Shown here: positions 17,631 through 33,006 of the stretch, piece after piece | Position numbering within the stretch: the first letter of the stretch is position 1 | How the letters are laid out: the number at the start of each line of letters is the position of its first letter | NCBI GenBank assembly: GCA_000702085.1 | Contig: KL370861.1 | Span: 188,911 to 252,910 of the forward strand | DNA length: 64,000 bases | Direction: 5' to 3' | Source of the DNA: Lachnospiraceae bacterium P6A3 | GTDB lineage: Bacteria > Bacillota > Clostridia > Lachnospirales > Lachnospiraceae | Translations under genes and position numbers: made by a program | Notes under the pieces: generated by a model | The model's database searches: none | What the model was told of the DNA's origin: nothing | The model's input: only the letters and a program-made list of their open reading frames with translations

Positions 17631-17852
17631 ATGACAATATCTTATAACGGATTGTGGAAACTATTAATTGATAAAAATCTGCAACGTAAAGATCTTGAAC
17701 AGGAACTAAAGCTTAGTCCGAGTACCATTGCAAAAATGGGACGCGGAGAAGCTGTCTCTATGTCTGTGTTGATTAAGATATGCAACTACTTAGATTGTGA
17801 TTTTGGAGATGTGGTTAATTTAATAAAAGAACGGGAGAAAGATAATGGCTGA
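17631..17852 (+). CDS. Small XRE-type HTH regulator of the restriction operon
   Basis: Start ATG 17631 is set by AAGGA (17620-17624); TTG 17616 and ATG 17625 overlap the ribosome binding site. The 73-aa protein reads MTISYNGLWKLLIDKNLQRKDLEQELKLSPSTIAKMGRGEAVSMSVLIKIC and is almost entirely one HTH domain. Such proteins often precede hsdM and may delay restriction when the element enters a new host. It overlaps hsdM by eight bases. Confidence 0.85.
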   Translation: MTISYNGLWKLLIDKNLQRKDLEQELKLSPSTIAKMGRGEAVSMSVLIKICNYLDCDFGDVVNLIKEREKDNG

Positions 17853-19953
17853 GAAGACAGTAATTGATGCAATGTGGGACGATTCCCCGATTGATGTTTC
17901 AACAGAGGTGAATTTTATATGGTCTATCGCAAACAAATTACGCGGTACATACCAAAGCGACAAGTATAAAGATGTAATCATACCAATGGTGATTATCCGT
18001 AGATTTGAGTGTGCATTGGCACCAACAAAACAGAAGGTGGTTGATCAGTTTAAGGCTAATCCTAAATATCCTGCTAAGGCTATGTATAAAATTTCTGGCT
18101 ACCAGTTTTACAATACTAGCGAATTTGATCTCGCGGAATTGGTTAATGATTCTGATCATTTGGCTGCTAATTTCAAAGCATATTTAGAGAGTTTTTCAAC
18201 TAATGTTCAGGATATTATCGTTTCTTCAGAAAAGGGATTAGACTTCTACAAACAGATTGACAAGATGGACAAGAACAATCGACTGTTTAGTGTTGTTAAG
18301 GCCTTCTCAGAATTAGATCTAAATCCTAGAACTATTGATAATGTAAAGATGGGATATATTTTCGAGGACCTTATCAGAAGATTTTCTGAAAATGCAGAAG
18401 CTGGTGATCATTACACTGGGCGAGATATCATTAAGCTCATGGTTAACATTCTTCTTGCGGAAGGCTGTGATGATATTTTTGATGATGGAAAAGTAATAAC
18501 TGTTTTGGATCAGGCTTGTGGAACTGGTGGTATGTTGTCGACAAGCTATAATTTTATTAAGAGATATAATCCAACTGCAGACGTTCGATTATTTGGTCAG
18601 GAAATTAACCCTGAATCCTATGCAATTTGTTTAGCAGAGATGATGATTAAAGGCCAGAATGCAGAGAACATCTGCTATCAGGATACAATGAGAAAAGACC
18701 GTTTCAAAGGGACTAAGATGCGCTTCGTAATAGAAAATCCACCTTTTGGTACACCTTGGGGAGGAAAGGACGCTGCTGAGGGTGTTGAAAAAGATGTAAT
18801 TGATGAATATAAAAAAGGATTTGATGGACGTTGGGGCGCTGGGCTTCCGGGTTCCGGCGATATGCAGATGCTTTTTCTTCAATCTGCCATTGATAAGATG
18901 GATGATAATTTGGGACGTGCGGCAATTATTGAACATGGGGGGCCATTGTATACAGGCAGTACTGCTTCTGGTGAAAGTCAGATTAGAAAATGGATGCTCG
19001 AAAATGATTTGATTGAAGCAATAATCGCTTTGCCTACTGACTTGTTTTATAACACCCCTTTGACAACTTATATTTGGGTTCTTTCAAAAAATAAACGACC
19101 TGAACGAAAAAGAAAAGTTCAGCTTATTGATGCATCATCTTTTTATCACAAGTTAAGAAAGGGATTGGGTGATAAGAAAAACGAGATTTCCCCAGAAGAT
19201 AGAAGTGCAATCACGAAAGTGTATTCTGAATTTGAAGAATGCGAATTTTGTAAAATATTTGATATAGAGGAATTTTTGTATAAAGAATATGTGGTAATGC
19301 AACCATTGCAGAGGAGCTATTCTATTACCGATGAGAGTATTGAAAACATGGTTCAAACAGGAACACTTAGTTCATTATATGATGCCTCAAAAGTTGCTGA
19401 GCTAGAGACGGCAGAAGAACTCACTGGTAAAGAACTAAAGAAACTGCAAGCTTATCAGAAAAATAAGCCTTTGTATGATGCAATTGTTAAAACATTGGGA
19501 GATGCTACATCTTCAAAGATTTACCTTTCCCCAGAAGATTTTATGCCTGTTTTGTCTGCAATACTGGAAGACGTAACTACCGACAAAAACCTTCTTGAAA
19601 AGATAGCAGATGGATTATCTGTAATGAATAAAAATGCTGTAATTCAGCGTGATAAAAAAGGCAATATTATTTATGATAAGGCATCAAAGGATATAGAGTA
19701 TGTCAAATACCGTGAAAGTATTGATGACTATATGCAGAGAGAGGTTCTTCCATACATCCCTGATGCAAAAGCATTTTTTGAAGAAAAACTAGATGTAAAA
19801 AAGCCGGTTATAAAAACAGGAGCAGAAATAGCTTTTACAAGGTATTTTTACAAGTATCAAAATCCAACACCAAGTGATGAGCTTGAAAAACAATTTGTTG
19901 AATTAGAAAAAACAATTAGCGAGCGTATTACTCATCTTTTTAAGGGGGAGTGA
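17845..19953 (+). CDS. hsdM: Type I restriction-modification methyltransferase subunit
   Basis: 702 aa. An N-terminal HsdM helical domain (STEVNFIWSIANKLRGTYQSDKYKDVIIPMVIIRRFE) precedes the N6-adenine methylase core with motif I DQACGTGGM at about residues 221-229 and motif IV NPPFG at about residues 298-302. It transfers a methyl group from S-adenosylmethionine to adenine in the target set by HsdS. Complete. hsdS starts three bases after its stop codon. Confidence 0.95.
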   Translation: MAEKTVIDAMWDDSPIDVSTEVNFIWSIANKLRGTYQSDKYKDVIIPMVIIRRFECALAPTKQKVVDQFKANPKYPAKAMYKISGYQFYNTSEFDLAELVNDSDHLAANFKAYLESFSTNVQDIIVSSEKGLDFYKQIDKMDKNNRLFSVVKAFSELDLNPRTIDNVKMGYIFEDLIRRFSENAEAGDHYTGRDIIKLMVNILLAEGCDDIFDDGKVITVLDQACGTGGMLSTSYNFIKRYNPTADVRLFGQEINPESYAICLAEMMIKGQNAENICYQDTMRKDRFKGTKMRFVIENPPFGTPWGGKDAAEGVEKDVIDEYKKGFDGRWGAGLPGSGDMQMLFLQSAIDKMDDNLGRAAIIEHGGPLYTGSTASGESQIRKWMLENDLIEAIIALPTDLFYNTPLTTYIWVLSKNKRPERKRKVQLIDASSFYHKLRKGLGDKKNEISPEDRSAITKVYSEFEECEFCKIFDIEEFLYKEYVVMQPLQRSYSITDESIENMVQTGTLSSLYDASKVAELETAEELTGKELKKLQAYQKNKPLYDAIVKTLGDATSSKIYLSPEDFMPVLSAILEDVTTDKNLLEKIADGLSVMNKNAVIQRDKKGNIIYDKASKDIEYVKYRESIDDYMQREVLPYIPDAKAFFEEKLDVKKPVIKTGAEIAFTRYFYKYQNPTPSDELEKQFVELEKTISERITHLFKGE

Positions 19954-19956
19954 GAA

Positions 19957-21228
19957 ATGCAAGAAAAGATAGATAGCGGAATTGATTGGGTTGGTTATAT
20001 ACCTAAAAACTGGAGAGTTTTAAGGAATAAACATAACTTCTTGCTCGAGAAGGTAGTGGTTGGGACTGAGTGGGAAGATACTCAATTATTGTCATTAACT
20101 AAGAATGGAATAAAGGCAATAAACGATGGGGAGCAAACAGGAAAAGTGCCTACGTCTTTTGCAACCTATCAAAAAGTAAAAAAAAATGATCTTGTAATGT
20201 GTCTCTTCGATTTGGATTGTTCGGCAGTTTTCTCGGGATTGAGTTCAATTGATGGCATGATTTCGCCTGCCTATAAATGCTTTAAGTGTAAATCTCATAT
20301 CTATCCTCAGTATGTAGACTATTATTTTCAGACAGTTTTTGAAGGAAGAAAATATATGAGATATTCAAAGAATGTCAGGTATTCTATTTCCGCAGATGAG
20401 TTTTTGAGTCTACCTATAATAGTACCATCAATGGAAGAACAAGTTATAATAGCATCATTTTTAAAGCAGCGTTGTGAAGAAATTGATGAGTTAACTTCGA
20501 ATATTGAAAAGCAATTGGCTTTGCTCGACGAATACAGAAAATCGGTGATAACTGAATGCGTCACGCGTGGAATTGATGATTCTAAAGAAATGAAAGATAG
20601 TGGAGTTGCGTGGTGCCCGGTGATTCCCACGGATTGGACTGTTACAAATCCTAAGGCAATGTTTAAACTTCGTAATCAGAAAGCAAGCGAGGGCGAACGT
20701 CAATTAACTGCAAGCCAAGAATATGGAATAATATATCAAGATGATTATATGGAGATAACAGGAAGTAAGGTTGTTACTGTTGAAAAGGATTTTAGCATAT
20801 TAAAGCATGTAGAACCTAACGACTTTGTAATTAGCATGAGAAGTTTTCAAGGTGGGTTAGAATTTAGCGAACTAAGCGGAAGCATTAGTTCTGCATACGT
20901 CATGCTAATTCCTGATGAGCAGCGGGTTTATCCACCGTTTTTTCGGTGGTTCTTTAAATCAAGTAAGTACATTAATGCTATTCAGAGCACGACAAACCTT
21001 GTTCGTGATGGACAGGCAATGAGATATGCTAACTTTATAAAAGTACCACTTTTTATTATACCAATGGATGAACAGAAAAGAATTGCTGAATACCTTGATG
21101 TAACTGTAAAAGAAATAGATGATATAAGAGCTAAAAAACAGGAGCAGTTAGATGATTTACTCCAATATAAAAAATCTATGATTTTTGAATATGTAACTGG
21201 TAAGAAGGAGGTGCCGGTCAATGGATGA
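19957..21228 (+). CDS. hsdS: Type I restriction specificity subunit
   Basis: 423 aa with the two-repeat HsdS layout. The first target-recognition domain starts at DSGIDWVGYIPKNW and ends in a conserved helix (MEEQVIIASFLKQRCEEIDELTSNIEKQ, about residues 148-185). The second starts DSGVAWCPVIPTDW near residue 212 and ends in MDEQKRIAEYLDVTVKEIDDIRAKK at about 368-395. Each domain reads half of a bipartite DNA target. Overlaps hsdR by eight bases. Confidence 0.94.
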   Translation: MQEKIDSGIDWVGYIPKNWRVLRNKHNFLLEKVVVGTEWEDTQLLSLTKNGIKAINDGEQTGKVPTSFATYQKVKKNDLVMCLFDLDCSAVFSGLSSIDGMISPAYKCFKCKSHIYPQYVDYYFQTVFEGRKYMRYSKNVRYSISADEFLSLPIIVPSMEEQVIIASFLKQRCEEIDELTSNIEKQLALLDEYRKSVITECVTRGIDDSKEMKDSGVAWCPVIPTDWTVTNPKAMFKLRNQKASEGERQLTASQEYGIIYQDDYMEITGSKVVTVEKDFSILKHVEPNDFVISMRSFQGGLEFSELSGSISSAYVMLIPDEQRVYPPFFRWFFKSSKYINAIQSTTNLVRDGQAMRYANFIKVPLFIIPMDEQKRIAEYLDVTVKEIDDIRAKKQEQLDDLLQYKKSMIFEYVTGKKEVPVNG

Positions 21229-24200
21229 AAAAAAGCCGATTGATATAATCAAAATAAACGAATCTCAAATTTCAGAAAGGACTGCAAAGAGAGTTTCGGC
21301 TTATTGCGATAGGCTTATTCATCATGCATCTATTGTTTCTGAAAAGGAGTATCAGAAGTTCCTTCTTGAAAGGCTTAATAAAGATAACGGATATATTATC
21401 CGTAAAGCTAATGATTTTGATCGCTATTTTGCTGTTGATCGAGAAATGCTTTTTAAATTTTTAAGTTATACTCAAGCTGATACGATGGAGTACCTTAGAA
21501 AAATATACAAAGCAGATCTGGAAGAGACGATTGTAAACCTTATAAATACAGAAACTACAAAAGCGAGAGGCAGTCTTATTGAAGCTTTAAAGCATGGCAT
21601 AGAGATTTCCAACCAAAAACTTGAGCTAATGTATACTAAGCCAGCAACTACATACAATCCAGAGCTTACAAAAAAATATGGACAGAATATTTTTTCTGTT
21701 ATGGAAGAAGTATGGGCTAGTGATAAGGAGAGGGTAGATGTTGTAATATTCTTAAATGGACTAGCGATTATGTCTTTTGAATTGAAATGCAATGCAGCTG
21801 GCCAGTCTTACCAGGATGCAATTTATCAGTTTAGAACAGATAGAAATCCAAATACAAGACTTTTTTTATTCAAGGCAGGTACACTTGTTAATTTTGCTAT
21901 GGATTTAGAAAAAGTTTATATGACTACGAAACTTGATGGCGAAGCCACGTTCTTCCTCCCTTTCAACATGGGGAATGGGGAGGGGATTGCGGCAGGTGCA
22001 GGCAATCCAATCTTTGAAGATAAGTATAGTGTGTCATATATGTGGGAAGATATTCTTAAGAAAGACACTGTACTTGATTTGATTAGCAAGTTTATCTTCG
22101 TAGAAACAAAAGAAAAAGTAGATGAACTGACTGGAAAAACGAAAAGGTCTGAAAATATTATTTTTCCTCGATATCACCAGTTGGATGTTATAAGAAAAAC
22201 GTTAGCTGATGTTAAAGAGAATGGAACAGCACAGAACTATTTGATTCAGCATAGTGCTGGTTCTGGCAAAACAAATTCCATAGCTTGGCTTGCACACAGA
22301 CTTACTTCTTTGCATGATGAAAATAATAAGATTATTTTTAACAACGTTGTCATAGTGACAGATAGAGTAGTAGTAGATCGCCAGCTTCAAAAGGCAATCA
22401 TGGGAATGGAACATAAAGCAGGTCTTATTAGGGTGATGGATGATAAGTGTAATTCTGCAGATTTGGCTATTGCATTAAATGGTAATACAAAAATAATTGC
22501 AACGACAATTCAGAAGTTCCCATATATTGTTGACAGTGTTGCTGGACTTAAAGAAAAGCGCTTTGCTGTAATTATAGATGAGGCGCATTCTTCTACGGCT
22601 GGTAAAGATATGGCTGCTATTACGATGACTCTGGGCTCCGGAGAAGAGGTTGAAGCGGATGCGGAAGATCTAATCTCAAGTGAGATTAAGCGAAATGGAA
22701 AACAGGAAAATGTTTCTATGTTTGCATTTACCGCTACACCCAAGCCCACTACTATTCAGCTTTTTGGTAGATTGAATAAAAATGGACAGCGTGAAGCATT
22801 CCATGTTTATTCAATGAAGCAAGCTATAGAAGAAGGTTTTATTCTTGATGTATTGCAAAACTATACTGAGTATTCCACTTTTTATCAACTCAATAAGGAG
22901 ATAGAAGAAGATCCAAGGTGTAAGACAAATGAGGCCAAACGACAGATTGCTCGTTTTATTGAACTTCATGACACTAATATTGCACAACGAGTAGAGGTGA
23001 TTGTCGAGCATTTTAGAACATCTGTAATGCAAGAGCTTGGTGGACAGGCCAAAGCAATGGTAATTACCGCTTCTCGTCAAGGCGCTGTGAAGTATAGGCA
23101 GGCGTTTGAGAATTATATTACAAAGAAAGGATATGAGGATATCCATGCTCTTGTAGCTTTTTCAGGAAAAGTTAAATTGCCAGATGATGCTACTGAATAT
23201 ACAGAGACTTCTATGAATGGATTCTCTGAAGATAGATTGACGAGAGAGTTTGATACGGATGCATACCAAGTTTTATTGGTTGCAAATAAATATCAAACAG
23301 GATTTGATCAGCCTAAACTTTGTGGAATGTACGTGTTAAAAAAACTCAAAGGCGTTAATGCTGTACAGACTCTATCAAGGCTTAATCGTATATGCGCACC
23401 GTATGATAAAAAGACATTTGTATTGGACTTTGTTAATACATATGAGGAAATAAAAGCTGCGTTTGCACCATATTATACGACCACTTTATTGTCTAATTCC
23501 GTAACACCAAGTGCAGTATATGATCTTGAAGCCAAAATTGATGCTTATTCAATCCTTGATCCAGCGGATATTGATGCGACAAATGAGATTTTATATTCGC
23601 CAAAAGCCTCTGGAAAAGATAAGCAGCGATTGACGTTCTTTCTCCAGAAAAGTAAGAAGTTGCTAGAAAACTATAATTATGAAGAACAGAGAAATTGTGT
23701 GGCTGCAATGCGTAGTTTTGTAAGATTTTATGAGTTTTTATTACAAGCATCATGTTTTGAAGATACTGAACTTCATAAAAAATACAATTATGTATCATAC
23801 TTGCTAGCATATATAAACATTAAGCATCCGGGAAGTGGATTTAATTTGGATGGAAAGATTAAAGCTACAAATTTTGTTCAGAAAAAAGGCGAAGAGCATA
23901 AAATATCGAAACTCGTAGCTGATCCTGTACTGAAGTTACCGATAGCGGATCATTTTGGATTGACGGAAGACAAAGAGAAACGACTTTCCGAAATAATAGA
24001 TGAGATTAATAGTAGAACTGGAAAAAACTATGACAATGATGTTGTGGTCAAGGCTATGCTCCAGATTCGAGATATTTTGATGAAATCTGAAAAGCTCAAG
24101 ACAAGCGCGAAGAATAACACTCAAAAAGACTTCGAGTTTTCTTACTTCGATGATATTGATGACGCGCTAATTGAGGGCTTGTCACAAAACCAGGATTTCT

Positions 24201-24289
24201 TTTCGTTGATGCTTTCAAATGAAGAAATGAAAAGAGAAGTGCTAGGTATTTTTTCAGATGAAATATATAAGAGCTTAAGAAATGCATAA
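21221..24289 (+). CDS. hsdR: Type I restriction endonuclease/translocase subunit
   Basis: 1022 aa, AAGGAGG at 21207-21213. The N-terminal PD-(D/E)XK nuclease is visible as RVDVVIFLNGLAIMSFELK (about residues 171-190). Walker A SAGSGKT at about 345-351 and the DEAH box IIDEAHSS at about 452-458 mark the SF2 translocase, with FAFTATP and QTGFDQP further on. It cuts unmodified DNA after translocation, with HsdM and HsdS. Complete and apparently intact. Confidence 0.95.
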   Translation: MDEKKPIDIIKINESQISERTAKRVSAYCDRLIHHASIVSEKEYQKFLLERLNKDNGYIIRKANDFDRYFAVDREMLFKFLSYTQADTMEYLRKIYKADLEETIVNLINTETTKARGSLIEALKHGIEISNQKLELMYTKPATTYNPELTKKYGQNIFSVMEEVWASDKERVDVVIFLNGLAIMSFELKCNAAGQSYQDAIYQFRTDRNPNTRLFLFKAGTLVNFAMDLEKVYMTTKLDGEATFFLPFNMGNGEGIAAGAGNPIFEDKYSVSYMWEDILKKDTVLDLISKFIFVETKEKVDELTGKTKRSENIIFPRYHQLDVIRKTLADVKENGTAQNYLIQHSAGSGKTNSIAWLAHRLTSLHDENNKIIFNNVVIVTDRVVVDRQLQKAIMGMEHKAGLIRVMDDKCNSADLAIALNGNTKIIATTIQKFPYIVDSVAGLKEKRFAVIIDEAHSSTAGKDMAAITMTLGSGEEVEADAEDLISSEIKRNGKQENVSMFAFTATPKPTTIQLFGRLNKNGQREAFHVYSMKQAIEEGFILDVLQNYTEYSTFYQLNKEIEEDPRCKTNEAKRQIARFIELHDTNIAQRVEVIVEHFRTSVMQELGGQAKAMVITASRQGAVKYRQAFENYITKKGYEDIHALVAFSGKVKLPDDATEYTETSMNGFSEDRLTREFDTDAYQVLLVANKYQTGFDQPKLCGMYVLKKLKGVNAVQTLSRLNRICAPYDKKTFVLDFVNTYEEIKAAFAPYYTTTLLSNSVTPSAVYDLEAKIDAYSILDPADIDATNEILYSPKASGKDKQRLTFFLQKSKKLLENYNYEEQRNCVAAMRSFVRFYEFLLQASCFEDTELHKKYNYVSYLLAYINIKHPGSGFNLDGKIKATNFVQKKGEEHKISKLVADPVLKLPIADHFGLTEDKEKRLSEIIDEINSRTGKNYDNDVVVKAMLQIRDILMKSEKLKTSAKNNTQKDFEFSYFDDIDDALIEGLSQNQDFFSLMLSNEEMKREVLGIFSDEIYKSLRNA

Positions 24290-24308
24290 ATTAGGAGGTG
24301 CTAGCGCA

Positions 24309-27140
24309 ATGTTTGAAAAATATCGCTTAAAATCAGTGCTGGTTGAATATAAAAAGAGTTTTGAAACACGCTGGAAAGAAGAAAAATACAAGTGGGAAGC
24401 AGTTCAATGCTTTCAGGTTAATTGGGAAATAAATGCTGGTAATTTCAGTGAGATGTTAACAAAGGCACTTTCTCAGACAGGAAATCTTTTGGTGTCTACT
24501 AACTATTTTCCTGCAAAAATGATTATTAAATTTGCGGAAATAGTTCCAGAAGAAGTTCGAGCTATGTTTATTAACTTATATGATGAAAGTAAAGATGTCT
24601 ATCAGCGAATTGACGATTTTAAGCAAAAATCAAACAGCCTTCTAGAACGATACGGAAATGGAGCGGCTCAGCACTATCAGTATGAGAATACGATTACTAC
24701 ATACTTATGGCTCAGATATCCGGATAAGTATTATATTTTCAAACTGACGGAAATAAAGGCTGTTTCAAATGAATTAGAGAGTGACTATCAGTTTAAAAAA
24801 GGTGCTTACGCCGACAATATTCGTAATTTTTTATCATTCTATAATGAAATATGTGAGGAGCTTAAGCGGGATGATGAACTCAAGAATATGTTGACATCAC
24901 AACTTACTGGTACGTGCTATCCTGACCAGGAGCTTAAGACTCTCACTATAGACGTTGGGTTCTATATTAGCAGATATATCAGCAGTGATAATCAGTCCGC
25001 TTCTACAGATGAATGGTGGCCTCAAGATTATACACCTGCCCTTTCAGTTGATGATTGGGAAGCTTTATTAAATGATAATGACATCTTTATCGATAGTAGT
25101 TTGGAAATAATGAAGCGAATGCTTGATTATGGAGGAAAAGCTACATGTACTCAGCTTTCCATAAAATACGGTGAGAGCAAGAATTTTTACAATGTTGGAT
25201 CTTCAGCATTAGCAAAGAGAATTGTACAAAAGACGGGTTGCCCGGTTATACCACGAGATGAGGAGAATAGCAGATATTGGCCTGTCCTTTATGTAGGAAA
25301 GCCTGCAAGGAAAGATGAAGATGGAGCATATGTTTGGAAACTTCGAGATGAGCTACTTGAAGCGCTTCAGAGAGTTGATTTATCAAAAGTTAAGCTTTAT
25401 GCAAATCTAACACCTCGATTTTGGAAAATTAGCCATGGAAACGATTGTATTAGTGATGCGGAAGCAATCGCTTTTGATAAGAGAAGAGTAATCGTGGTTC
25501 ATAAAGACACTGCAGCGATGGCTAAATCAAGTGTTAGTCAGGGAGATGATTTTACCGCAAACATGAAGAAGGGGGATTACTTCTACATGTGCAGAGGTAA
25601 CAGCGTAAGACTGCTCGGCAGAATTGATACGGATGAAGTTGAAGAAAATCCTGAAAAGCTAGATGGATGGTGTGAACGGAGCTACACTGTGATTGCAGAA
25701 TCACGAGATAAGAACGCATATTCGGGAGAAAAAAAGTGGTGGACACCCAACTTCAATTCTACATGCATTCCCGTTCCAGAAGCTGATTATACATTGTTTG
25801 AGAAAAATATATTAAAACCATATTTTGGAGTGACTAAAGAAGATTTGCTTAAAGGTGATACTTCTGGCATCAACTATTGGTTTTTAAATGCTAATCCTAA
25901 AATTTGGAGTATGTCCAGTATGCCTGTAGGAGAGGTGCAGGATTATACTCTTTACAATGACAATGGAAATAAGCGACGCATTTTTCAAAACTTCCTTGAT
26001 GCCAAAGCGGGTGATATGGTAATTGGTTATGAATCCACTCCTGTAAAGCAGATTGTCGCCATTCTAAGAATCAGTGCTGAACAAGATGGCGAAAAAATAT
26101 ATTTTGAGAAACTGGAGGGACTGACTTCTCCTATAGATTTCTCGACGTTGAAAGAGTGCTCTGAACTCGAAAAGATGGAGTACTTTGGCATGCAGCAAGG
26201 TAGCCTTTTTAAGCTTACCAAAGGAGAATATGAATTTATTCTCGATATGATACGCGAAGAAAATCCGGCTCCTGCTACAAAAGGTAATACTCCATATACA
26301 AAAGAGGATTTTCTTAATCAGGTTTATATGACTGAAGCCAAGTATGATAGATTGGCTGCGGTATTAAAAAAGAAGAAGAATGTAATCCTTCAAGGCGCTC
26401 CTGGTGTTGGTAAGACCTTCGCAGCCAAAAGACTGGCTTACTCAATTATGGGAGAAGTAGATGAGGATCGCATTGAATTTATTCAATTCCATCAGAATTA
26501 TTCATATGAAGATTTTATGATGGGATATAAGCCTGTTGATGATGGATTTAAGCTTAAATTTGGAATCTTTTACAGATTTTGCAAAAAAGCAGAAAATCAT
26601 CCAGATAAAGATTTCTTCTTCATAATTGATGAAATCAATCGCGGAAATATGAGCAAGATTTTTGGTGAATTGCTTATGCTTATTGAGTCTGATTACCGTG
26701 ATAAAAAGGCTACTTTAGCTTATAACGGATTAGAGTTTACGGTACCAAAAAGATTGCATATCATTGGTATGATGAATACAGCGGATCGAAGCCTTGCGAT
26801 GATCGATTATGCTCTTCGTAGAAGATTCAGTTTTTTTGATATGGAACCGGGATTTGATTCGGAAGGTTTTTTAAACTATCAGAAAGGATTTAACAGCGTA
26901 ACATTTGATACATTAGTTGAGAAGATAAAAGAACTGAATGGAGATATCTTAAAAGATCCATCTTTAGGAAAAGGATTCTGCATCGGACATAGTTATTTCT
27001 GTAATATAGATCAGTGCACTGACGATGTGCTGAAAGATATTGTTGATTTTGATATCATTCCTATGCTCAGCGAATATTGGTTCGACGATAATGCAAAGCT
27101 TCAGAAGTGGGAAAATATTCTACATGGGGTGTTTCAATGA
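24309..27140 (+). CDS. mcrB: McrB-type AAA+ restriction NTPase with EVE/PUA-like domains
   Basis: Start ATG 24309 follows AGGAGG (24293-24298); the upstream ATG 24282 lacks a ribosome binding site. 943 aa. An N-terminal region of unknown fold (1-365) is followed by a possible PUA-like segment (about 380-500) and a clear EVE domain (WFLNANPKIWSMSSM..DYTLYNDNGNKRRI, about 522-625). The McrB AAA+ module has Walker A GAPGVGKT (about 695-702), FFFIIDEINRGN (about 766) and the McrB signature MMNTADRS (about 820). EVE domains bind modified cytosine, so the target is probably modified DNA. Stop overlaps the mcrC start (ATGA). Confidence 0.92.
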   Translation: MFEKYRLKSVLVEYKKSFETRWKEEKYKWEAVQCFQVNWEINAGNFSEMLTKALSQTGNLLVSTNYFPAKMIIKFAEIVPEEVRAMFINLYDESKDVYQRIDDFKQKSNSLLERYGNGAAQHYQYENTITTYLWLRYPDKYYIFKLTEIKAVSNELESDYQFKKGAYADNIRNFLSFYNEICEELKRDDELKNMLTSQLTGTCYPDQELKTLTIDVGFYISRYISSDNQSASTDEWWPQDYTPALSVDDWEALLNDNDIFIDSSLEIMKRMLDYGGKATCTQLSIKYGESKNFYNVGSSALAKRIVQKTGCPVIPRDEENSRYWPVLYVGKPARKDEDGAYVWKLRDELLEALQRVDLSKVKLYANLTPRFWKISHGNDCISDAEAIAFDKRRVIVVHKDTAAMAKSSVSQGDDFTANMKKGDYFYMCRGNSVRLLGRIDTDEVEENPEKLDGWCERSYTVIAESRDKNAYSGEKKWWTPNFNSTCIPVPEADYTLFEKNILKPYFGVTKEDLLKGDTSGINYWFLNANPKIWSMSSMPVGEVQDYTLYNDNGNKRRIFQNFLDAKAGDMVIGYESTPVKQIVAILRISAEQDGEKIYFEKLEGLTSPIDFSTLKECSELEKMEYFGMQQGSLFKLTKGEYEFILDMIREENPAPATKGNTPYTKEDFLNQVYMTEAKYDRLAAVLKKKKNVILQGAPGVGKTFAAKRLAYSIMGEVDEDRIEFIQFHQNYSYEDFMMGYKPVDDGFKLKFGIFYRFCKKAENHPDKDFFFIIDEINRGNMSKIFGELLMLIESDYRDKKATLAYNGLEFTVPKRLHIIGMMNTADRSLAMIDYALRRRFSFFDMEPGFDSEGFLNYQKGFNSVTFDTLVEKIKELNGDILKDPSLGKGFCIGHSYFCNIDQCTDDVLKDIVDFDIIPMLSEYWFDDNAKLQKWENILHGVFQ

Positions 27141-28222
27141 CAAGAGATAGAAGGATACTGATAAAAAACATATATCATATGCTTTCTTATGCTTTCAATT
27201 CTCTTAATCATGAAGGCTTTCAGAATGTTGCTAAAGAGGAATTTGATAATATTCAAAATATGTTTGCCGCTATCCTGTGTAGAGGTGTAAATCTCCAACT
27301 TAAACACGGCCTTTATAAAGAATATGTCGAAAAAACAGAGGATTTATCTGTCATACATGGAAAGATAAATCTTCAAGAAACTATCAAAAATAAGATTGAA
27401 AAACGAAAACTTGTAACATGTGATTTTGATGAATTATCCGAGAATAATCTTTTCAATCAGATTATTAAATCCTCAATGATATTGCTGTTAGGTAGTAGTG
27501 AAGTTGAAGAACAGTACAAAAAGGAAATGAAGAAATCGTTGCTGTTCTTTTCGACCATTGATGAAGTTGTCGATATAAAAAACATACAATGGTCGTCTAT
27601 AAGATTTCAACGCAACAATCAGAGTTATAGATTGCTTCTTGGAATTTGTCAACTAATGATCGAAGGAATGATTATCACCACGGAGAAAGGTGTTTATAAG
27701 ATTGCGACATTTGTTGATGATCAAAGGATGTGGCATTTATTCCAAAATTTCATCCTGGAATATTACAAGAAACACTATCCAGAATTGAGACCGCATTCAC
27801 CTCAGATACCTTGGGATGTACCGGAGTCAACTGATATGACTTTGTTGCCAGCAATGCAAACAGACATTGTGCTGCATAATAAACCTAAGACATTGATTAT
27901 CGATGCCAAGTATTACTCGAAAAGTTCTTTTCAAAAGCAGTTTGATAAACAGACGATAATGTCTGGTAATCTTTATCAAATTTATACATACGTAAAGAAC
28001 TGTGATAGTAATAATACAGGTGATGTTTCGGGGCTATTGTTATACGCAAAGACTGATGAGGAGCTTGAACCTAGGGGCGATTATATGATGGGGAGGAATC
28101 ATATTGGAGTTGATTATCTTGATTTAAGTGTTGAATTTGAAGATATAAGAGACAAACTTGACTCTATTGTAGAGCGGGAGTTGGGATATATCATCAGAAT
28201 TAAAAAAATGCAAAATCAATAG
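27137..28222 (+). CDS. mcrC: McrC-type nuclease subunit of the McrBC system
   Basis: 361 aa from ATG 27137, which overlaps the mcrB stop as ATGA. It belongs to the 5-methylcytosine restriction McrC/LlaJI.2 type: an N-terminal VIHGKINLQETI and SENNLFNQIIK motif, and a C-terminal PD-(D/E)XK nuclease seen as MQTDIVLHNKPKTLIIDAKYY (about residues 238-258). It cuts DNA when activated by the McrB ring. Confidence 0.92.
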   Translation: MTRDRRILIKNIYHMLSYAFNSLNHEGFQNVAKEEFDNIQNMFAAILCRGVNLQLKHGLYKEYVEKTEDLSVIHGKINLQETIKNKIEKRKLVTCDFDELSENNLFNQIIKSSMILLLGSSEVEEQYKKEMKKSLLFFSTIDEVVDIKNIQWSSIRFQRNNQSYRLLLGICQLMIEGMIITTEKGVYKIATFVDDQRMWHLFQNFILEYYKKHYPELRPHSPQIPWDVPESTDMTLLPAMQTDIVLHNKPKTLIIDAKYYSKSSFQKQFDKQTIMSGNLYQIYTYVKNCDSNNTGDVSGLLLYAKTDEELEPRGDYMMGRNHIGVDYLDLSVEFEDIRDKLDSIVERELGYIIRIKKMQNQ

Positions 28223-28254
28223 TAGCTATTAGACATAAAGAGGAACGCCGAAAT

Positions 28255-29319
28255 ATGAATAATAGTTTTTCTGTTATGACTGATAAAATGCAAATGTTAT
28301 ATATGGATATAGTAGCTTCGTTGGGACAGCTGCCGGAAGAACAGAAGGGTTTTATTTTTGGCTATGAGGGAGAGGAAGACTACGATTGGATTCATGCGGT
28401 GGCTTGTTATATAGCACTGGAATTCGTAAAGTATTCGTTTGATTATTCGGATCCGCAATTTCCGCTACGACATTTCCTACAAGATGTTGATGATGATAGT
28501 GAACGTATGCTGCAGCAAAGAATCATGCAGTACGTTTTAAAGTACAAAAAACAAGAAATAGAAATGAAAGGCGGAGATATTTCTCCAAATGATAAATTTG
28601 CAAATTTGAATATGGATGAGATAGACAGTAAACTTAAAGGCTATCGCATCACAGAGATGAATTATTTTGAACAACAAAACATCCATGATCTTGAGATAAT
28701 AAAATCCATTGTGGAAAGACGAATTGTTAGCTCAAAAAAGGTTTCTAATGCTCGTTTTGTTGAAATCATGGAACAGTATGATGAATTTGTGGAATCTTTG
28801 ATAGAACGATCCAAAAAGAGTGATAAAGATATGGTATTTGCATCTTTAGCATTCTTTACACTTGAATGGCATTATCCAATCGAATTTTTTTATTTCCTGG
28901 CAAACATTATGGAAGAAGAGAGAATAGATGCCATTGATCAGGATGCTCTTGTTCTTTTGTGTGGATATGTAAACATTGAATCGAGATTTGGTGGATGGTT
29001 TTCCACAGAAAGTCGAATGATAAAGGGGCGGATTTTAGTATCGCCATTATTGTTCGGAAGAGAGGCCGATAGGTTTTCTCGTGAGACTATGAAGGATCTA
29101 TTGAAGGAAATTCTGGTATTAATTACAAAATATACTGAGGTAGTGGAGGTTGAAGACGGGCGGCTTTATAAGGATTGGTTTAGGGAGGAGTCTTCTTTGA
29201 CTGATTGGGCGTCTTTCTTTAGGTTTTATGATGTTTTCGCTATATGGCAGAGAAAGGAATGGACGCCTAAGCGAATACAAAAGATGAGATATTTGTTTGA
29301 GTCAACTTTGAGTAAATAG
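28255..29319 (+). CDS. Unknown protein next to McrBC
   Basis: 354 aa, AGAGGAA before the start. Not recognised. It is acidic and helical, with an N-terminal domain containing DYDWIHAVACYIALEFVKYSFDY and a C-terminal region DWFREESSLTDWASFFRFYDVFAIWQRKEWTPKRIQKMR. No signal peptide or membrane helix. It is 32 bases downstream of mcrC, on the same strand, and its composition matches the restriction genes, so it may be an accessory or partner of the defence block. Confidence 0.7.
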   Translation: MNNSFSVMTDKMQMLYMDIVASLGQLPEEQKGFIFGYEGEEDYDWIHAVACYIALEFVKYSFDYSDPQFPLRHFLQDVDDDSERMLQQRIMQYVLKYKKQEIEMKGGDISPNDKFANLNMDEIDSKLKGYRITEMNYFEQQNIHDLEIIKSIVERRIVSSKKVSNARFVEIMEQYDEFVESLIERSKKSDKDMVFASLAFFTLEWHYPIEFFYFLANIMEEERIDAIDQDALVLLCGYVNIESRFGGWFSTESRMIKGRILVSPLLFGREADRFSRETMKDLLKEILVLITKYTEVVEVEDGRLYKDWFREESSLTDWASFFRFYDVFAIWQRKEWTPKRIQKMRYLFESTLSK

Positions 29320-29348
29320 GTAAATCCCAAAAATCGTTCTTAGAAGAG

Positions 29349-29389
29349 TGAGTTTTCACATGATACCTTATTCATGTAAGGAAAACTCA
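29349..29389 (+). other. Hairpin just before the ribosome binding site of a 38-codon gene
   Basis: TGAGTTTTC plus ACATGA pair with TCATGT and GAAAACTCA across an 8-base loop, leaving a small bulge. The 3' arm ends a few bases before AAAGGAGG (29393-29400), so it can act as a leader structure or partial terminator. Confidence 0.5.
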
Positions 29390-29410
29390 GAGAAAGGAGG
29401 ACGATTGAAA

Positions 29411-29527
29411 ATGGATGCGACTGATCGTTGCTGGGAAACCGGTACATATACCGATGAATGTATTTGCGAAATGTGTGAACACAAAAACGAATGTAGTGGA
29501 TACGAAGATCATGATGATGAGGATTAA
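29411..29527 (+). CDS. 38-aa cysteine-rich acidic micropeptide
   Basis: ATG 29411 follows a near-perfect AAAGGAGG at 29393-29400 (a TTG at 29405 is an alternative start). The peptide has five cysteines and a CW pair: C-W-E, then C-I-C-E-M-C-E-H-K-N-E-C, and ends in an acidic HDDED tail. The CxCxxC-x5-C spacing with a histidine suggests a zinc or iron binding knuckle. It is followed after 26 bases by the 138-aa gene. A strong ribosome binding site and neat spacing argue that it is a real gene. Confidence 0.6.
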   Translation: MDATDRCWETGTYTDECICEMCEHKNECSGYEDHDDED

Positions 29528-29553
29528 TTGTAAAAAGAAAGAGGGTGCTGCTT

Positions 29554-29970
29554 ATGGAAGTGCGAGATTTAGGCGGCTGGAGATTTTTTATCGGTGACGA
29601 TAGTGGATTTGTAAAAGAAAAAGTAGGAAAGTGGATGTATTTCTTTAGGGATTATGAAGGAAGGAAATTCACGGAAGAGCGGTGTCGCGAGGTCGTCGAA
29701 CAAGAAATTGTTTGGGAATCTAAGTGTTCTGATAGTAATGAGGGAGTAGCTTGTTTTTATTTGAATATTGATGACATTGAACGACATAAGCAAATCCTAC
29801 AATATTTTGTTGACCATGATATGATTCGTCGAACCAAAGCTGGAAAGCTATATAATATTTCTTTCAAACTAGACAATCAAACTAGAGCGGGTGCTTATGG
29901 AAATGATTTTAACGCAGAACTGAAATTGGAAGATTTTATGGATTTAACAACTGGGAAATGGTATGTGTAG
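29554..29970 (+). CDS. Conserved hypothetical protein of unknown function
   Basis: Start ATG 29554 with GAAAGAGGG at 29537-29545; 138 aa. It begins MEVRDLGGWRFFIGDDSGFVKEKVGKWMYFF and has a central C-x-C-free YLNIDDIERHKQILQYFVDHDMIRRTKAGKLYNISFK stretch. I recall similar proteins in other clostridia but know no function for them. It is the last gene of the cargo block and has a terminator-like hairpin behind it. Confidence 0.65.
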   Translation: MEVRDLGGWRFFIGDDSGFVKEKVGKWMYFFRDYEGRKFTEERCREVVEQEIVWESKCSDSNEGVACFYLNIDDIERHKQILQYFVDHDMIRRTKAGKLYNISFKLDNQTRAGAYGNDFNAELKLEDFMDLTTGKWYV

Positions 29971-29997
29971 ATGCCATAACAGGTCTCCTTTCACATA

Positions 29998-30038
29998 TGG
30001 AGCATAGGCTGTACTTCGGCTTATGCTCCATTTGTTTG
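29998..30038 (+). terminator. Terminator-like hairpin at the end of the cargo block
   Basis: TGGAGCATAGGC (29998-30009) pairs with GCTTATGCTCCA (30019-30030), one G-T pair, followed by TTTGTTTG. Confidence 0.7.
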
Positions 30039-30173
30039 GGGATTATTGTCTTATCATTAATAGGTAATAGCAAATGATTATCAAGAAATTGTTCATTGAA
30101 TTTTTCAAAACATGTTTGTTGATTTTTACCAATTGAAAAAGTCACTTAAGCGTAATATATTATATCCATAAAG

Positions 30174-30194
30174 CAAACATACGTTCGATATAAT
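30174..30194 (+). promoter_or_regulatory. LexA/DinR-box-like palindrome overlapping a -10 element
   Basis: The sequence CAAACATACGTTCG (30174-30187), read on the minus strand, matches the Firmicute LexA (DinR) consensus CGAACRNRYGTTYC at 13 of 14 positions. TATAAT follows at 30189-30194. No good -35 is seen. The 528-base gap 29971-30498 otherwise holds a terminator, a cruciform-prone segment (CAGACG 30211-30216 / CGTCTG 30250-30255) and only short doubtful reading frames. Confidence 0.5.
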
Positions 30195-30498
30195 TCAAGC
30201 GTTGGGAGGCATACCGCAGACGGCACTAAGCCTCAGTGTAAACGGAAAACGTCTGTATATCTTTGAGGGAGGAAATGAACATATGGAGAAGGATGTTTAT
30301 ACGCGTAGGGGAGGGTGATATATCCGGCACCTGCGCAATTTATTACAGAGGATTTTAGTGAGCTGCTCGGACCTCGGAGATTTATAGTCGGCTTGCTTCC
30401 ACAATTAAATAATCATTGTTCCATAGTAACTTGTAAAGGTGACTTTCCCTTTCCTTTTCAAGCCGGTATCTCTTATGAAACGGGGGTGAATAGTCACG

Positions 30499-30705
30499 AT
30501 GGATAAGATTGATTTTTACTGCAGGAAATGCAGAAAATCATTTAAGATGTCCTATGAGATTAGCGGTAATGATGATGCAGCCGCTATGAACGGCATCATG
30601 ATCAGGTGTCACACCAATAAATGTACCAGAGTAGTGACCCTCAAGAATTTCACTGAGGGGCAGATAATAGCAAGAACAGATTCTTGCGGTAAGTGCTACT
30701 TATAA
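30499..30705 (+). CDS. Small zinc-ribbon-like protein
   Basis: 68 aa, GGGGGTGA upstream. Cysteines are arranged as CRKC near residues 8-11 and C-H-T-N-K-C at about 37-42, a two-knuckle zinc ribbon, with a further CGKC at the C terminus. Small proteins of this kind are common in the regulatory end of clostridial ICEs. Role unknown. Confidence 0.65.
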   Translation: MDKIDFYCRKCRKSFKMSYEISGNDDAAAMNGIMIRCHTNKCTRVVTLKNFTEGQIIARTDSCGKCYL

Positions 30706-30713
30706 TCAAAGAA

Positions 30714-30725
30714 TACACGCGTGTA
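30714..30725. promoter_or_regulatory. 12-bp perfect palindrome TACACGCGTGTA
   Basis: It lies between the zinc-ribbon gene and the sigma-like regulator, in otherwise asymmetrical DNA, and could be an operator for the regulatory module (inference). Confidence 0.35.
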
Positions 30726-30785
30726 AATCATGCATAACAAACAATTAAACAGGGCTTCATGATATGGGGGCACAGACCCACCGCG

Positions 30786-30836
30786 GACGCATGAAAAGAT
30801 GATCAGTTAAAGGCTGAGTCTTTTTATGCGTCTTTT
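30786..30836 (+). terminator. Leader terminator/attenuator before the sigma-like gene
   Basis: GACGCATGAAAAGA (30786-30799) pairs with TCTTTTTATGCGTC (30819-30832) with one G-T pair, followed by TTTTCGTTTTG. It lies 50 bases before the sigma-like regulator and so may control read-through into the regulator-xis-int unit. Confidence 0.65.
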
Positions 30837-30887
30837 CGTTTTGCTTCCTTTTTCCGGTCATCATCCTGAGAGAGGAGACAAAATACG

Positions 30888-31466
30888 TTGAAAAAAGACA
30901 AAACAGATTTTCTTACGCTGTACAGACAGGCTGATGCAGACGGCAGGTTTGATCTGATGATGGCTAATTTCACCAAATTTCCGGGAATTATCAAAAATGC
31001 AGAGGTCAAGACTATGTACAGGATCCGGTCTGAAAGGGAATATCTTCGGAGCAGATCCAGGGATGAACTTGGTGTTCGGGTACAGGGATCCGGCATGGCT
31101 GACAGCACTTCGGAAGAAGCGATGGACATAGCTGCCATTAAAGAGTCCTTTATTACCGGAAAGCTGCCTAAAGCAATGCTTAAGGGCGTAGAAGGGGCAG
31201 ATGATTACCTGGAGGATATCAGGACGATAAGCCTGATGCACATGGACTATGAGCTGTTACAGGGGATTGTGGCGACACTTGAAGAAAATGAGGCAAAGCT
31301 CTTCAGAATGCATGTGGTTGAGGGTCAGTTTTTCAAGGAAATCGGAGATGAGGATGGCCGGAACATGGAAACTGTCAGAAAACGAATGCAAAAGCTTCGT
31401 AACAGGCTTCGGGACGACATGGTGGAACTGCTTGAGATCAACTGTAGAAAGGATAGAAGAAAATGA
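30888..31466 (+). CDS. Sigma-70 region 4-like regulator
   Basis: 192 aa from TTG 30888 with AGAGGAG at 30871-30877. The C-terminal part (TLEENEAKLFRMHVVEGQFFKEIGDEDGRNMETVRKRMQKLRNRLRDDM, about residues 126-175) has the helix-turn-helix of sigma region 4. Proteins like this precede xis and int in Tn916/Tn1549-type elements and are thought to switch the element's gene expression. ATGA overlap with xis. Confidence 0.75.
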   Translation: MKKDKTDFLTLYRQADADGRFDLMMANFTKFPGIIKNAEVKTMYRIRSEREYLRSRSRDELGVRVQGSGMADSTSEEAMDIAAIKESFITGKLPKAMLKGVEGADDYLEDIRTISLMHMDYELLQGIVATLEENEAKLFRMHVVEGQFFKEIGDEDGRNMETVRKRMQKLRNRLRDDMVELLEINCRKDRRK

Positions 31467-31681
31467 ATGAAAAAGAGCATGAAGAAATAAAGGTACCCAT
31501 ATCGGAGTCTTATACCCTTTCTATAGAAGAGGCTGCTGAATACTTCGGAATCGGGCAGACGAGACTTCGCAGACTTATCAAGCTGAATCCGGGTGCAGAC
31601 TATTTGATTTCCATAGGAAACCGTACCCGGATAAAACGCATTAAATTCGAGCATTTTATTGATTCTGCTTCAGTTCTCTGA
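31463..31681 (+). CDS. xis: Excisionase (Tn916 Xis-like)
   Basis: 72 aa. YTLSIEEAAEYFGIGQTRLRRLIKLNP is the winged-helix/MerR-like DNA-binding domain of Tn916-family excisionases; a basic RTRIKRIKFEHFID wing follows. Xis bends the element ends and drives integrase toward excision. It lies between the sigma-like regulator and the integrase gene, as usual. Confidence 0.88.
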   Translation: MNEKEHEEIKVPISESYTLSIEEAAEYFGIGQTRLRRLIKLNPGADYLISIGNRTRIKRIKFEHFIDSASVL

Positions 31682-31782
31682 CGTGGCAGACAAATGCTTT
31701 TCAATGGCAGATTATGGCCCGATATGCTATGATTATCAGTGCATATCGGAGCTGAAATTTTCGAAAAATGGAGGTTTTCGAT

Positions 31783-33006
31783 ATGAGCGAAAAAAGAAGA
31801 GACAGCCGCGGAAGGATTCTTCGCAGCGGCGAGATTCAGGAAAGCAACGGAAGATACAGATTTAAGTACAAGGATACTCTTGGAAGGGAAAGATGTGTCA
31901 GGTCCTGGAGGCTTGATGCATCCGATCCGGTACCGGCCGGAGAAAAGCCGGATGTGCCGCTTAGGGAACTGGAAAAGAGGATCAGCAAGGATCTGGACGA
32001 TCTTGTTGCACCTGAGGGAGGAGGGTTTAAGGTTGTTGATCTGGTAGAGAGATATGTCTCATTGAGAAGAGGAGGAGTACGTCCCAGCACGCAGGCCGGA
32101 TACAGGACGGTAATGAAGCTTTTGAATAATGATCCGTTCGGATCCGTTCCGGTGGATAAAGTCAGAAAAATTGATGCCCAGAGATGGCTTATCAAGCTCC
32201 AGGCGGAAGGCAAAGGCTATAGTTCCATACACGTGATAAGAGGAGTGCTCAGACCTGCTTTCGAAATGGCTGTAGATAATGATTTTATAAGGAAGAACCC
32301 TTTTGAGTTCGATCTTGGAAGTGTTATCTACAACGATAGTGTCAAGAGAGAGGCGCTCTCCCGTGAAGATGAAAGAAAGTTCATGACTTTCGTCAGGGAA
32401 GATTCCTATTTCAGAAGGCACTATGATGCGTTCTATATCCTGTTCAATACAGGCCTCAGAATATCTGAGTTTGCCGGACTGACCCTTAAGGATGTAGATA
32501 TCGAAAACAGGAAGATCAATGTTGACCATCAGCTCCAGAGAGATATTGGCATCGGTTATAACATCAGAGAGACTAAGACTCGTGCGGGAGCAAGGATTGT
32601 CCCCATGACGGAGGAAGTCAGCGAGTGTTTTAAACGCATTATTGCTAAGCGTAAGAAACTCAAAGTTGAACCCATGGTCGACGGCTATTCGGGATTTATA
32701 TTTATAGACAAAGACGGTCATCCTATGGTTGCCATGCACTTTGAGAACTTTTTCAGGCATGCGGTAGCAAAATACAACTCCATTTATAAGGTTCAGCTTC
32801 CGAATATCACGCCACATATTGCACGTCATACTTTCTGCAGTCGTATGGCTGCGGCGAGAATGAATCCCAAAACTTTGCAGTATATTATGGGGCACTCAGA
32901 TATCGGAGTTACGCTTAATACCTACACTCACATGGGGGTCGAGGATGCCTGTGAAGAGATGTCTCAGATTGATAAAACCGGTACCGCAATCAGGTCAATT
33001 TCATAA
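31783..33006 (+). CDS. int: Tyrosine recombinase (ICE integrase)
   Basis: ATG 31783 follows TGGAGG at 31769-31774; the in-frame ATG 31768 overlaps that site. 407 aa. An N-terminal arm-binding domain (KRRDSRGRILRSGEIQESNGRYRFKY), a SAM-like core-binding domain and the catalytic domain with R226 (GLRISEF), H345-x-x-R348 (HIARH), H371 (MGHSD) and nucleophile Y381 (NTYTH). All five catalytic residues are present, so the enzyme is probably active. It inserts and excises the element. Confidence 0.95.
   Translation: MSEKRRDSRGRILRSGEIQESNGRYRFKYKDTLGRERCVRSWRLDASDPVPAGEKPDVPLRELEKRISKDLDDLVAPEGGGFKVVDLVERYVSLRRGGVRPSTQAGYRTVMKLLNNDPFGSVPVDKVRKIDAQRWLIKLQAEGKGYSSIHVIRGVLRPAFEMAVDNDFIRKNPFEFDLGSVIYNDSVKREALSREDERKFMTFVREDSYFRRHYDAFYILFNTGLRISEFAGLTLKDVDIENRKINVDHQLQRDIGIGYNIRETKTRAGARIVPMTEEVSECFKRIIAKRKKLKVEPMVDGYSGFIFIDKDGHPMVAMHFENFFRHAVAKYNSIYKVQLPNITPHIARHTFCSRMAAARMNPKTLQYIMGHSDIGVTLNTYTHMGVEDACEEMSQIDKTGTAIRSIS

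What the first reader, a model, noticed from the sequence alone, without database searches (positions are those of the whole stretch)
28255..29970. Three unassigned genes behind McrBC: 354 aa, 38-aa Cys-rich peptide, 138 aa
Directly after mcrC come an unknown helical protein, a 38-codon CxCxxC peptide with a near-ideal ribosome binding site, and a conserved unknown. They share strand and composition with the restriction genes and could be a further defence, regulatory or self-protection unit. The micropeptide would be missed by ordinary gene calling.
Basis: inference. Interest (0 to 1): 0.55.

Follow-up and report, generated by a model that had tools for sequence, protein, structure and literature searches.

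The report
Restriction-operon add-on with eIF4E-like fold
Behind a bacterial restriction operon sits a small mobile pair of genes, a cysteine-rich micropeptide and a protein predicted to fold like the mRNA cap-binding factor eIF4E and the human protein BLES03, whose relatives are repeatedly found inside other bacterial DNA-defence operons; the third gene is an unrelated orphan.

Summary
The three genes are real but are not one unit. The 354-aa gene (X) is an orphan: no relative in any collection searched. The 38-aa peptide (pep) and the 138-aa protein (Y) form a mobile pair: a congener carries the same 550-nt pep-Y block behind different genes, and pep evolves as protein (pN/pS 0.17). Pep relatives also lie in phage contigs.

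Y is the interesting part. From 49 homologues AlphaFold2 gives pLDDT 94 and an eIF4E/BLES03-type fold (Z 9.7). Pfam Bles03 is the family most members touch (7 of 49, all below cut-off). Three candidate active-site residues are invariant. Y is rare (4 of 200 family genomes) but recurs in defence operons: between hsdS and hsdR, directly after mcrC or GmrSD, beside AbiH or TIR genes, once fused to an SNF2/ResIII helicase. An Hsd/Mcr gene adjoins Y in 15 of 72 loci, against 1 of 196 control genes. Related restriction cassettes hold Y from different branches at different positions.

Best reading: Y is a portable accessory of restriction systems that acts on, or reads, a phosphorylated ligand. Lyase, sensor or cargo: untested. 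Some Y copies ride in prophages.

The parts
17845..28222 (+). host operon: hsdM 17845-19953, hsdS 19957-21228, hsdR 21221-24289, mcrB with EVE domain 24282-27140, mcrC 27137-28222 (a GTG start at 27107 also exists)
   Evidence: mcrB and mcrC by Pfam and NCBIfam; hsdR and hsdS by PADLOC; hsdM by similarity of its start to the HsdM cluster, not scanned
28255..29319 (+). X, 354-aa orphan gene; variable cargo behind mcrC
29332..29406 (+). hairpin in the X-pep spacer; arm 29332-29341 pairs with 29397-29406 and covers most of the Shine-Dalgarno sequence of pep
   Evidence: z -5.7 against 200 shuffles; lies outside the block shared with AC2028, which starts at 29398
29411..29527 (+). pep, 38-aa Cys-rich acidic peptide, likely zinc-binding (inference)
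29554..29970 (+). Y, 138-aa protein with predicted eIF4E/BLES03-type fold
29398..29939 (+). block shared with AC2028 (L015), 550 nt aligned, 74.7% identity: the pep-Y cassette
29997..30031 (+). terminator-like hairpin after Y, 15 pairs, weak T run
31463..33006 (+). Tn916-type excisionase (31463-31681) and integrase (31768-33006) of the mobile element
   Evidence: Pfam Tn916-Xis, Phage_integrase, Integrase_DNA

Best explanation
pep-Y is a mobile accessory module at the end of a composite type I restriction-McrBC operon on a Tn916-type element; X is a separate orphan cargo gene. Shown here: pep and Y are shared as one block with a congener behind different genes; Y belongs to a family repeatedly found in unrelated restriction and defence operons; Y is confidently predicted to have an eIF4E/BLES03-type fold, and K26, K57 and Y69 are invariant. 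Inferred: these residues line a pocket for a phosphoryl group, and Y helps the nucleases by recognising or erasing a phosphorylated ligand. The most concrete version is a phosphothreonine-type mark on a restriction subunit, or on a protein changed by an infecting phage, so that Y keeps or sets nuclease activity. Pep is inferred to be a zinc-binding partner or regulator of Y. Graded: fold and kinship to BLES03 about 0.85; functional accessory of defence about 0.7; phospho-ligand pocket about 0.45; actual lyase activity about 0.2.
For: Block homology confined to pep-Y. AlphaFold2 pLDDT 94.0, pTM 0.88 from 49 sequences; Foldseek and VIA-align put eIF4E and 1ztp (BLES03) first, BFVD a DUF1917 protein; Pfam Bles03 in 7 of 49 members, same register in the 5 listed singly. 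K26, K57, Y69, H78 and K105 in 49 of 49, K95 in 46 of 49; K26-K57 spacing of 31 equals K128-K159 of BLES03 (PMC4159009). Adjacent Hsd/Mcr gene in 15 of 72 Y loci against 1 of 196 control genes; other restriction or defence neighbours; fusion to an SNF2/ResIII helicase. Closely related cassettes in the window and Absicoccus porci hold Y from different tree branches at different positions. EcoKI HsdR is reported to be phosphorylated on threonine (passages of PMC3874165 and PMC12707154).
Against: The PF08939 cut-off is not reached (best 16.0 bits against 23.1) and only 1 PDB match has E below 0.001; Z 9.7 is only moderately above the 7-8 that the tool calls usual for models without a clear match. 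No activity is shown for BLES03 in what I read. Y is not needed by these systems: of 29 other family genomes with an mcrC match 1 (G116, a weak match) has Y anywhere, and of 44 others with an hsdR match 1 (G106). 25 of 42 Y clusters have no neighbour that I counted as restriction or defence, and some Y genes stand in prophage structural regions. Pep relatives lie in phages.
Confidence: 0.5

Rival explanations
1. Y is a ligand-sensing domain without catalysis, comparable to the WYL domains that accompany many defence systems: it binds a nucleotide, a cap-like base or a phosphorylated signal made during infection and switches a partner nuclease or the operon's transcription.
For: Y is fused to an HTH-like tail in L013/L058 (HTH read by eye) and to a helicase in L020; eIF4E-type folds bind ligands; spread over many defence types is known for WYL regulators (passages of PMC9122601).
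Against: The Lys-Lys-Tyr set of the proposed lyase is strictly kept, though this fits phosphate binding too; most Y proteins have no DNA-binding part; no ligand is known.
Confidence: 0.3
2. Y and pep are genes of phages and mobile elements (morons, or counter-defence genes) that land in variable islands, so their place near restriction genes reflects shared traffic and not joint function.
For: Pep relatives in phage contigs; Y before a tape-measure gene (L022), after tail-fibre genes (L063 group) and beside an endolysin gene (L073); the slot behind mcrC holds changing genes: 10 of 26 mcrC relatives have a same-strand ORF 4-30 nt downstream, of several kinds; 25 of 42 Y clusters without a counted neighbour.
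Against: Y start codons overlap the end of hsdS in L010, L040 and L051 and the end of mcrC in L039; Y is fused to a restriction-type helicase; Hsd/Mcr adjacency is about 40 times more frequent than for control genes in the same loci; several independent captures.
Confidence: 0.2
3. One reading: X, pep and Y together form a further defence, regulatory or self-protection unit.
For: Same strand, short gaps and similar GC; a hairpin between X and pep that could couple their translation; one terminator-like site after Y.
Against: X found nowhere else; the shared block starts inside the pep leader and excludes X; the hairpin lies almost wholly outside that block.
Confidence: 0.05

Closest known systems
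BLES03 / C11orf68 family (Pfam PF08939 Bles03, DUF1917; PDB 1ztp)
   Same: Predicted fold (VIA Z 9.7, 124 residues, 3.1 A, 17% identity); weak Pfam matches in one register; K/K/Y positions with like spacing (PMC4159009).
   Different: About 138 aa against a 255-position profile; below the Pfam cut-off; sits in bacterial restriction and defence operons, whereas PMC4159009 describes archaeal neighbourhoods that resemble lantibiotic clusters.
eIF4E
   Same: Predicted fold (Foldseek E 5e-4, VIA Z 9.7, 115 residues, 3.0 A).
   Different: 7-12% identity; no conserved Trp in the loop 14-23; cap binding not tested.
SpvC/OspF/LanL-type phosthothreonine lyases
   Same: Remote fold kinship and K-K-Y residues proposed for BLES03 in PMC4159009.
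   Different: By that paper the order of the structural segments differs between these lyases and BLES03/eIF4E; the catalytic His (K-x-H) is Met in 48 of 49 Y proteins and Leu in one. Not among the 50 rows shown.
PrrC and WYL/BrxR accessories of defence operons
   Same: Accessory genes embedded in, or travelling with, restriction operons (PrrC: passages of PMC3874165 and PMC12707154; WYL: passages of PMC9122601).
   Different: PrrC is an anticodon nuclease and BrxR a wHTH-WYL repressor; the predicted fold of Y is another one.

Membership tests
BLES03 (PF08939) | Score over the Pfam cut-off of 23.1 bits | tested here: not met
   7 of 49 members match, best E 0.012, 16.0 bits at best in those listed singly; the window's own Y has no match
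BLES03 (PF08939) | Fold of 1ztp | tested here: met
   Predicted model only: VIA Z 9.7, 124 residues aligned, 3.1 A
BLES03 (PF08939) | Putative active-site residues K128, K159, Y175, K204 (PMC4159009) | tested here: inconclusive
   K26, K57, Y69 in 49 of 49; K95 46 of 49 or K105 49 of 49; equivalence inferred from Pfam register and spacing, no residue-level superposition
eIF4E | Cap-binding Trp pair and Glu (recalled) | tested here: inconclusive
   No conserved Trp in loop 14-23; W9 and W27 invariant; equivalent positions not resolved
Phosphothreonine lyases of the SpvC/OspF type | Catalytic His two residues after the first Lys (K104, H106) | tested here: not met
   Position 28 is Met in 48 and Leu in 1 of 49, given that K26 corresponds to K104 (inferred)
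Phosphothreonine lyases | Beta-elimination of phosphate | not testable with these tools
   needs a biochemical assay
Restriction/defence accessory gene | Repeated neighbourhood with restriction genes beyond control genes | tested here: met
   15 of 72 loci against 1 of 196 control genes, Fisher p 1e-8; 10 of 42 clusters at 90% identity
Restriction/defence accessory gene | Effect on phage restriction | not testable with these tools
   needs plating assays
Three-gene unit X-pep-Y | Found together in other genomes | tested here: not met
   X in the own genome only; pep-Y without X in AC2028

The most novel reading that the evidence does not exclude
Y founds a class of defence proteins: a portable eIF4E/BLES03-fold enzyme that irreversibly strips phosphate from a phosphorylated restriction subunit or from a phage-altered host protein, so that restriction systems of several types carry their own phospho-eraser, with pep as its zinc-binding regulator. 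It would be a first biological role for this bacterial BLES03-like branch.
Probability: 0.2. Interest if true: 0.85.

Novelty: new variant of a known kind. Interest (0 to 1): 0.58.

Why it matters
Accessory genes inside restriction operons (PrrC is the classic) have shown how bacteria sense attacks on their restriction enzymes. A family with a phospho-ligand-type fold that recurs beside type I, McrBC, GmrSD and other systems points to a layer of control that may be undescribed, possibly protein phosphorylation in restriction. It also gives bacterial relatives of BLES03, a human protein without proven function, a setting in which function can be tested by phage plating. In nine literature searches, of which I saw listings and passages, I noticed no paper that links BLES03-like proteins with restriction or phage defence; the library holds open-licence papers only, so this is no proof of absence.

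Tried and rejected
X: Pfam, NCBIfam, PADLOC, PHROGs (one PHROG match of unknown function at E 0.004, not pursued), 200 family and 31 genus genomes, genome and viral contigs by six exact peptides, plasmids and phages, PDB sequences (E 0.16 at best), loci at hand, a single-sequence model: nothing usable.

A Cys peptide before Y as a rule: not so. With the criteria it was seen in the window, L015 and perhaps L045 (44 aa, C-x2-C-x-HK-x2-C, about 215 nt before Y). Three of 5 small ORFs with this motif in 1.12 Mb lie within 300 nt upstream of Y; this was counted after L045 had been noticed, and two of the three are homologous.

Direct sequence proof of the BLES03 residues: PDB searches with profiles A2, A3 and A6 did not return 1ztp; PF08939 over 299 Bacillota genomes gave nothing over the cut-off. 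SpvC/OspF did not appear among the 50 rows shown, which is no evidence against.

Rfam on 28200-30900: no match. tRNA genes in 14000-36000: none. E. coli genomes: no match by distant DNA search with a Proteus copy of Y. Pep in annotated phages: no match. Y elsewhere: 2 of 341 class genomes, 1 of 309 phylum genomes, the window's own counted in both. Y loci without any neighbour that I could place in defence include L027, L035, L045, L052-L055, L057, L059 and L061.

Errors of mine: the peptide was given one base out of frame (29412) (and in the failed), so those peptide results are void; correct. NCBIfam and PADLOC were not repeated for pep. In one search, 17 sequence records held as duplicates were dropped before the count, leaving 72 loci; fragments and frame-shifted copies of Y remain among them. 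The 54 genome loci come from two peptide patterns (107 stretches, 54 confirmed), so they are not a random sample. The set of 'recognised' neighbours was made by hand; Fic, kinase, AAA_15 and radical-SAM neighbours were not counted. Pfam scans covered 31 chosen neighbour proteins (30, one of them again and none of the rest), not all neighbours.

Full report
What is there. On one strand the window carries hsdM (17845-19953), hsdS, hsdR, mcrB with an EVE domain, mcrC, then X (28255-29319, 354 aa), pep (29411-29527, 38 aa) and Y (29554-29970, 138 aa), closed by a terminator-like hairpin at 29997-30031; a Tn916-type excisionase and integrase follow. The base composition of X, pep and Y is close to that of the restriction genes and not to that of the integrase.

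X is an orphan. It matches no curated family, only one PHROG of unknown function at E 0.004, and no other sequence: 1 of 200 family genomes and 1 of 31 genus genomes, the window's own in both; none in genome contigs, viral contigs, plasmids or phages at the sensitivity used. A model without relatives failed (pLDDT 38.6). Relatives of mcrC occur in 30 of 200 family genomes; in 10 of 26 such loci inspected a same-strand ORF starts 4-30 nt behind mcrC, and these ORFs are of several kinds. X looks like one item of variable cargo in that slot.

Pep and Y are a pair that moves. Of the stretches compared (window 28201-30700, L015 8001-12000) one block is shared: 550 aligned nt, 74.7% identical, window 29398-29939, from the leader of pep to near the end of Y. 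Upstream there stand an AAA_15 ATPase and a small gene with a sub-threshold Smr match instead of X and mcrC. Pep is under protein-level selection: pN/pS 0.17 with AC2028 and 0.16 with phage contig L109, against 0.30 to 3.0 in the other frames. Relatives lie in phage contigs L109, L110, L111 and L177 (in L177 in a run of genes that I read by eye as RusA, an ArpU-like regulator and HNH) and in genome G188. Six aligned members share C7, G11, C19, E20, C22, H24, C28 and G30, which I read as a zinc knuckle. The X-pep spacer folds into a hairpin that covers most of the Shine-Dalgarno sequence (z -5.7); its left arm starts 12 nt after the X stop, so ribosomes finishing X could open it. That is inference, and the hairpin lies almost wholly outside the block shared with AC2028.

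Y is a rare but scattered family. It occurs in 4 of 200 family genomes, 2 of 341 class genomes and 1 of 309 phylum genomes, the window's own counted each time. A profile scan of genome contigs gave 54 loci, mostly Lachnospiraceae and other Bacillota, with records labelled Collinsella/Olsenella, Treponema, Proteus, Cedecea and Succinivibrionaceae; viral contigs gave 18; Proteus, Serratia and one faecal 'phage' contig came from annotated records.

Fold. With 49 sequences AlphaFold2 gives pLDDT 94.0 and pTM 0.88. The 50 rows that Foldseek shows are, by title, eIF4E entries or complexes and 1ztp; one match has E below 0.001 (5e-4). VIA-align gives Z 9.7 for eIF4E (115 residues, 3.0 A) and Z 9.7 for 1ztp (124 residues, 3.1 A, 17% identity), above but not far above what the tool calls usual for models without a clear match. 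The first viral match is a giant-virus DUF1917 protein. Independently by sequence, Pfam Bles03 is matched by 7 of 49 members, more than any other family, all below the cut-off; in the five listed singly the C-G-K-W motif falls on profile positions 163-166 each time (positions counted by me). Khater and Mohanty (PMC4159009; abstract, passages and sections 11, 13 and 14 read) proposed from structure comparison that BLES03 is a phosphothreonine lyase with K128, K159, Y175 and K204. In Y, K26, K57, Y69 and K105 are found in 49 of 49 and K95 in 46; K26-K57 and K128-K159 are both 31 apart. The counterpart of K204 could be K95 (by the Pfam register) or K105. The His of SpvC is absent, as the paper also reports for BLES03. 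That work is computational; I saw no demonstrated activity for BLES03.

Defence context. Of 72 loci, 15 have an HsdR, HsdM, HsdS, McrB or McrC relative as the directly adjacent gene on the same strand, against 1 of 196 genes of 90-250 aa lying over 4 kb from Y in the same loci (Fisher p 1e-8). After collapsing the 49 good sequences at 90% identity, 10 of 42 clusters have such a neighbour and 17 of 42 a restriction or defence neighbour that I recognised; 25 have none counted. Examples: hsdS-Y-hsdR in L010, L040, L046 and L051, the Y start overlapping the end of hsdS in L010, L040 and L051; mcrC-Y overlapping in L039; GmrSD 13 nt upstream in L029; OLD- and UvrD-type genes (Gabija-like, by recall) upstream and McrBC further downstream in L018; Eco57I methylase, BsuBI/PstI endonuclease and a McrB relative around Y in L033; AbiH 50 nt upstream in L034; a TIR gene upstream in L047; a protein kinase upstream in L024; a gene of the Fic cluster 78-79 nt upstream in six related loci; a fusion to an SNF2/ResIII helicase in L020. 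L030 and L033 have Y proteins at least 90% identical amid different neighbours. Prophage positions also occur: before a tape-measure gene in L022, after tail-fibre genes in L063, beside an endolysin gene in L073.

Two captures. Absicoccus porci (L051) carries hsdM-hsdS-Y-hsdR-mcrB-mcrC, with hsdR 86% identical to the window's, mcrB 83% in its C-terminal and 68% in its N-terminal part and mcrC 53%; but its Y sits between hsdS and hsdR, where the window has none. In the tree the two Y proteins lie in different supported clades: the window with L015 (99/93), L051 with L041 (95/85) inside larger supported groups without the window. So closely related cassettes hold Y of different descent at different positions, at least two captures or a replacement. 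I take this as the strongest single argument for a functional link.

How it might work. The fold and the strict Lys-Lys-Tyr set suggest a pocket for a phosphoryl group. Two versions follow: an eraser of phosphorylated Thr/Ser, or a reader of a phosphorylated signal. For the first: EcoKI HsdR is reported to be phosphorylated on threonine with unknown role (passages of PMC3874165 and PMC12707154; the same passage says that type IB and IC examples were not). For the second: Y is joined to an HTH-like tail in L013/L058 (by eye) and to a helicase in L020, and spreads over many defence types as WYL regulators do (passages of PMC9122601). I lean to a helper acting on a phospho-ligand and leave the chemistry open. 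Against an essential role: of 29 other family genomes with an mcrC match 1 has Y anywhere, and of 44 others with an hsdR match 1. Against a purely defensive role: prophage copies of Y and phage relatives of pep.

Verdict. Y is best described as a defence-associated branch related to BLES03; I do not file it as a member, since the Pfam cut-off is not met.

Noticed in passing
L051 4229-6511; L010 525-2819: An AAA_13 gene (the family of PrrC/RloC-like proteins, by recall) stands upstream of hsdM in L051 (Pfam); L010 has a similar gene by eye.
   Followed up: no
window 33251-33706; L016 16921-17511; L019 15586-16056: The element's integrase end in the window lies next to a gene that I read as a low-molecular-weight protein phosphatase; L016 and L019, which also carry Y, have a relative of that gene downstream. 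A shared integration site is possible.
   Followed up: partly
L058 10001-10777 (same stretch as in L013): Y continues into a C-terminal tail of about 125 aa that looks like a helix-turn-helix domain by eye.
   Followed up: no
L009, L050, L063, L085, L086; L014 9623-9757: Broken copies of Y: reading frame interrupted in Serratia and several Proteus records and in L050, a 51-aa remnant in G116 beside methylase genes.
   Followed up: partly
L009 13693-16431: The Serratia plasmid copy of Y lies some kb from annotated DUF596 and DUF637 genes, which by recall belong to polymorphic-toxin loci.
   Followed up: no
L117, L122-L124, L126-L128, L132, L137, L139: The place directly behind mcrC holds different genes in different genomes, 4-30 nt from the mcrC stop; it may be a useful slot for finding accessory defence genes.
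   Followed up: partly
window 30499-30705: A 68-aa CxxC-bearing ORF between the restriction operon and the element's integration genes, without a family match over a cut-off.
   Followed up: partly
L024 8411-9922: A 503-aa protein-kinase-domain gene directly upstream of Y, of interest for the phospho-eraser idea; a single case.
   Followed up: no
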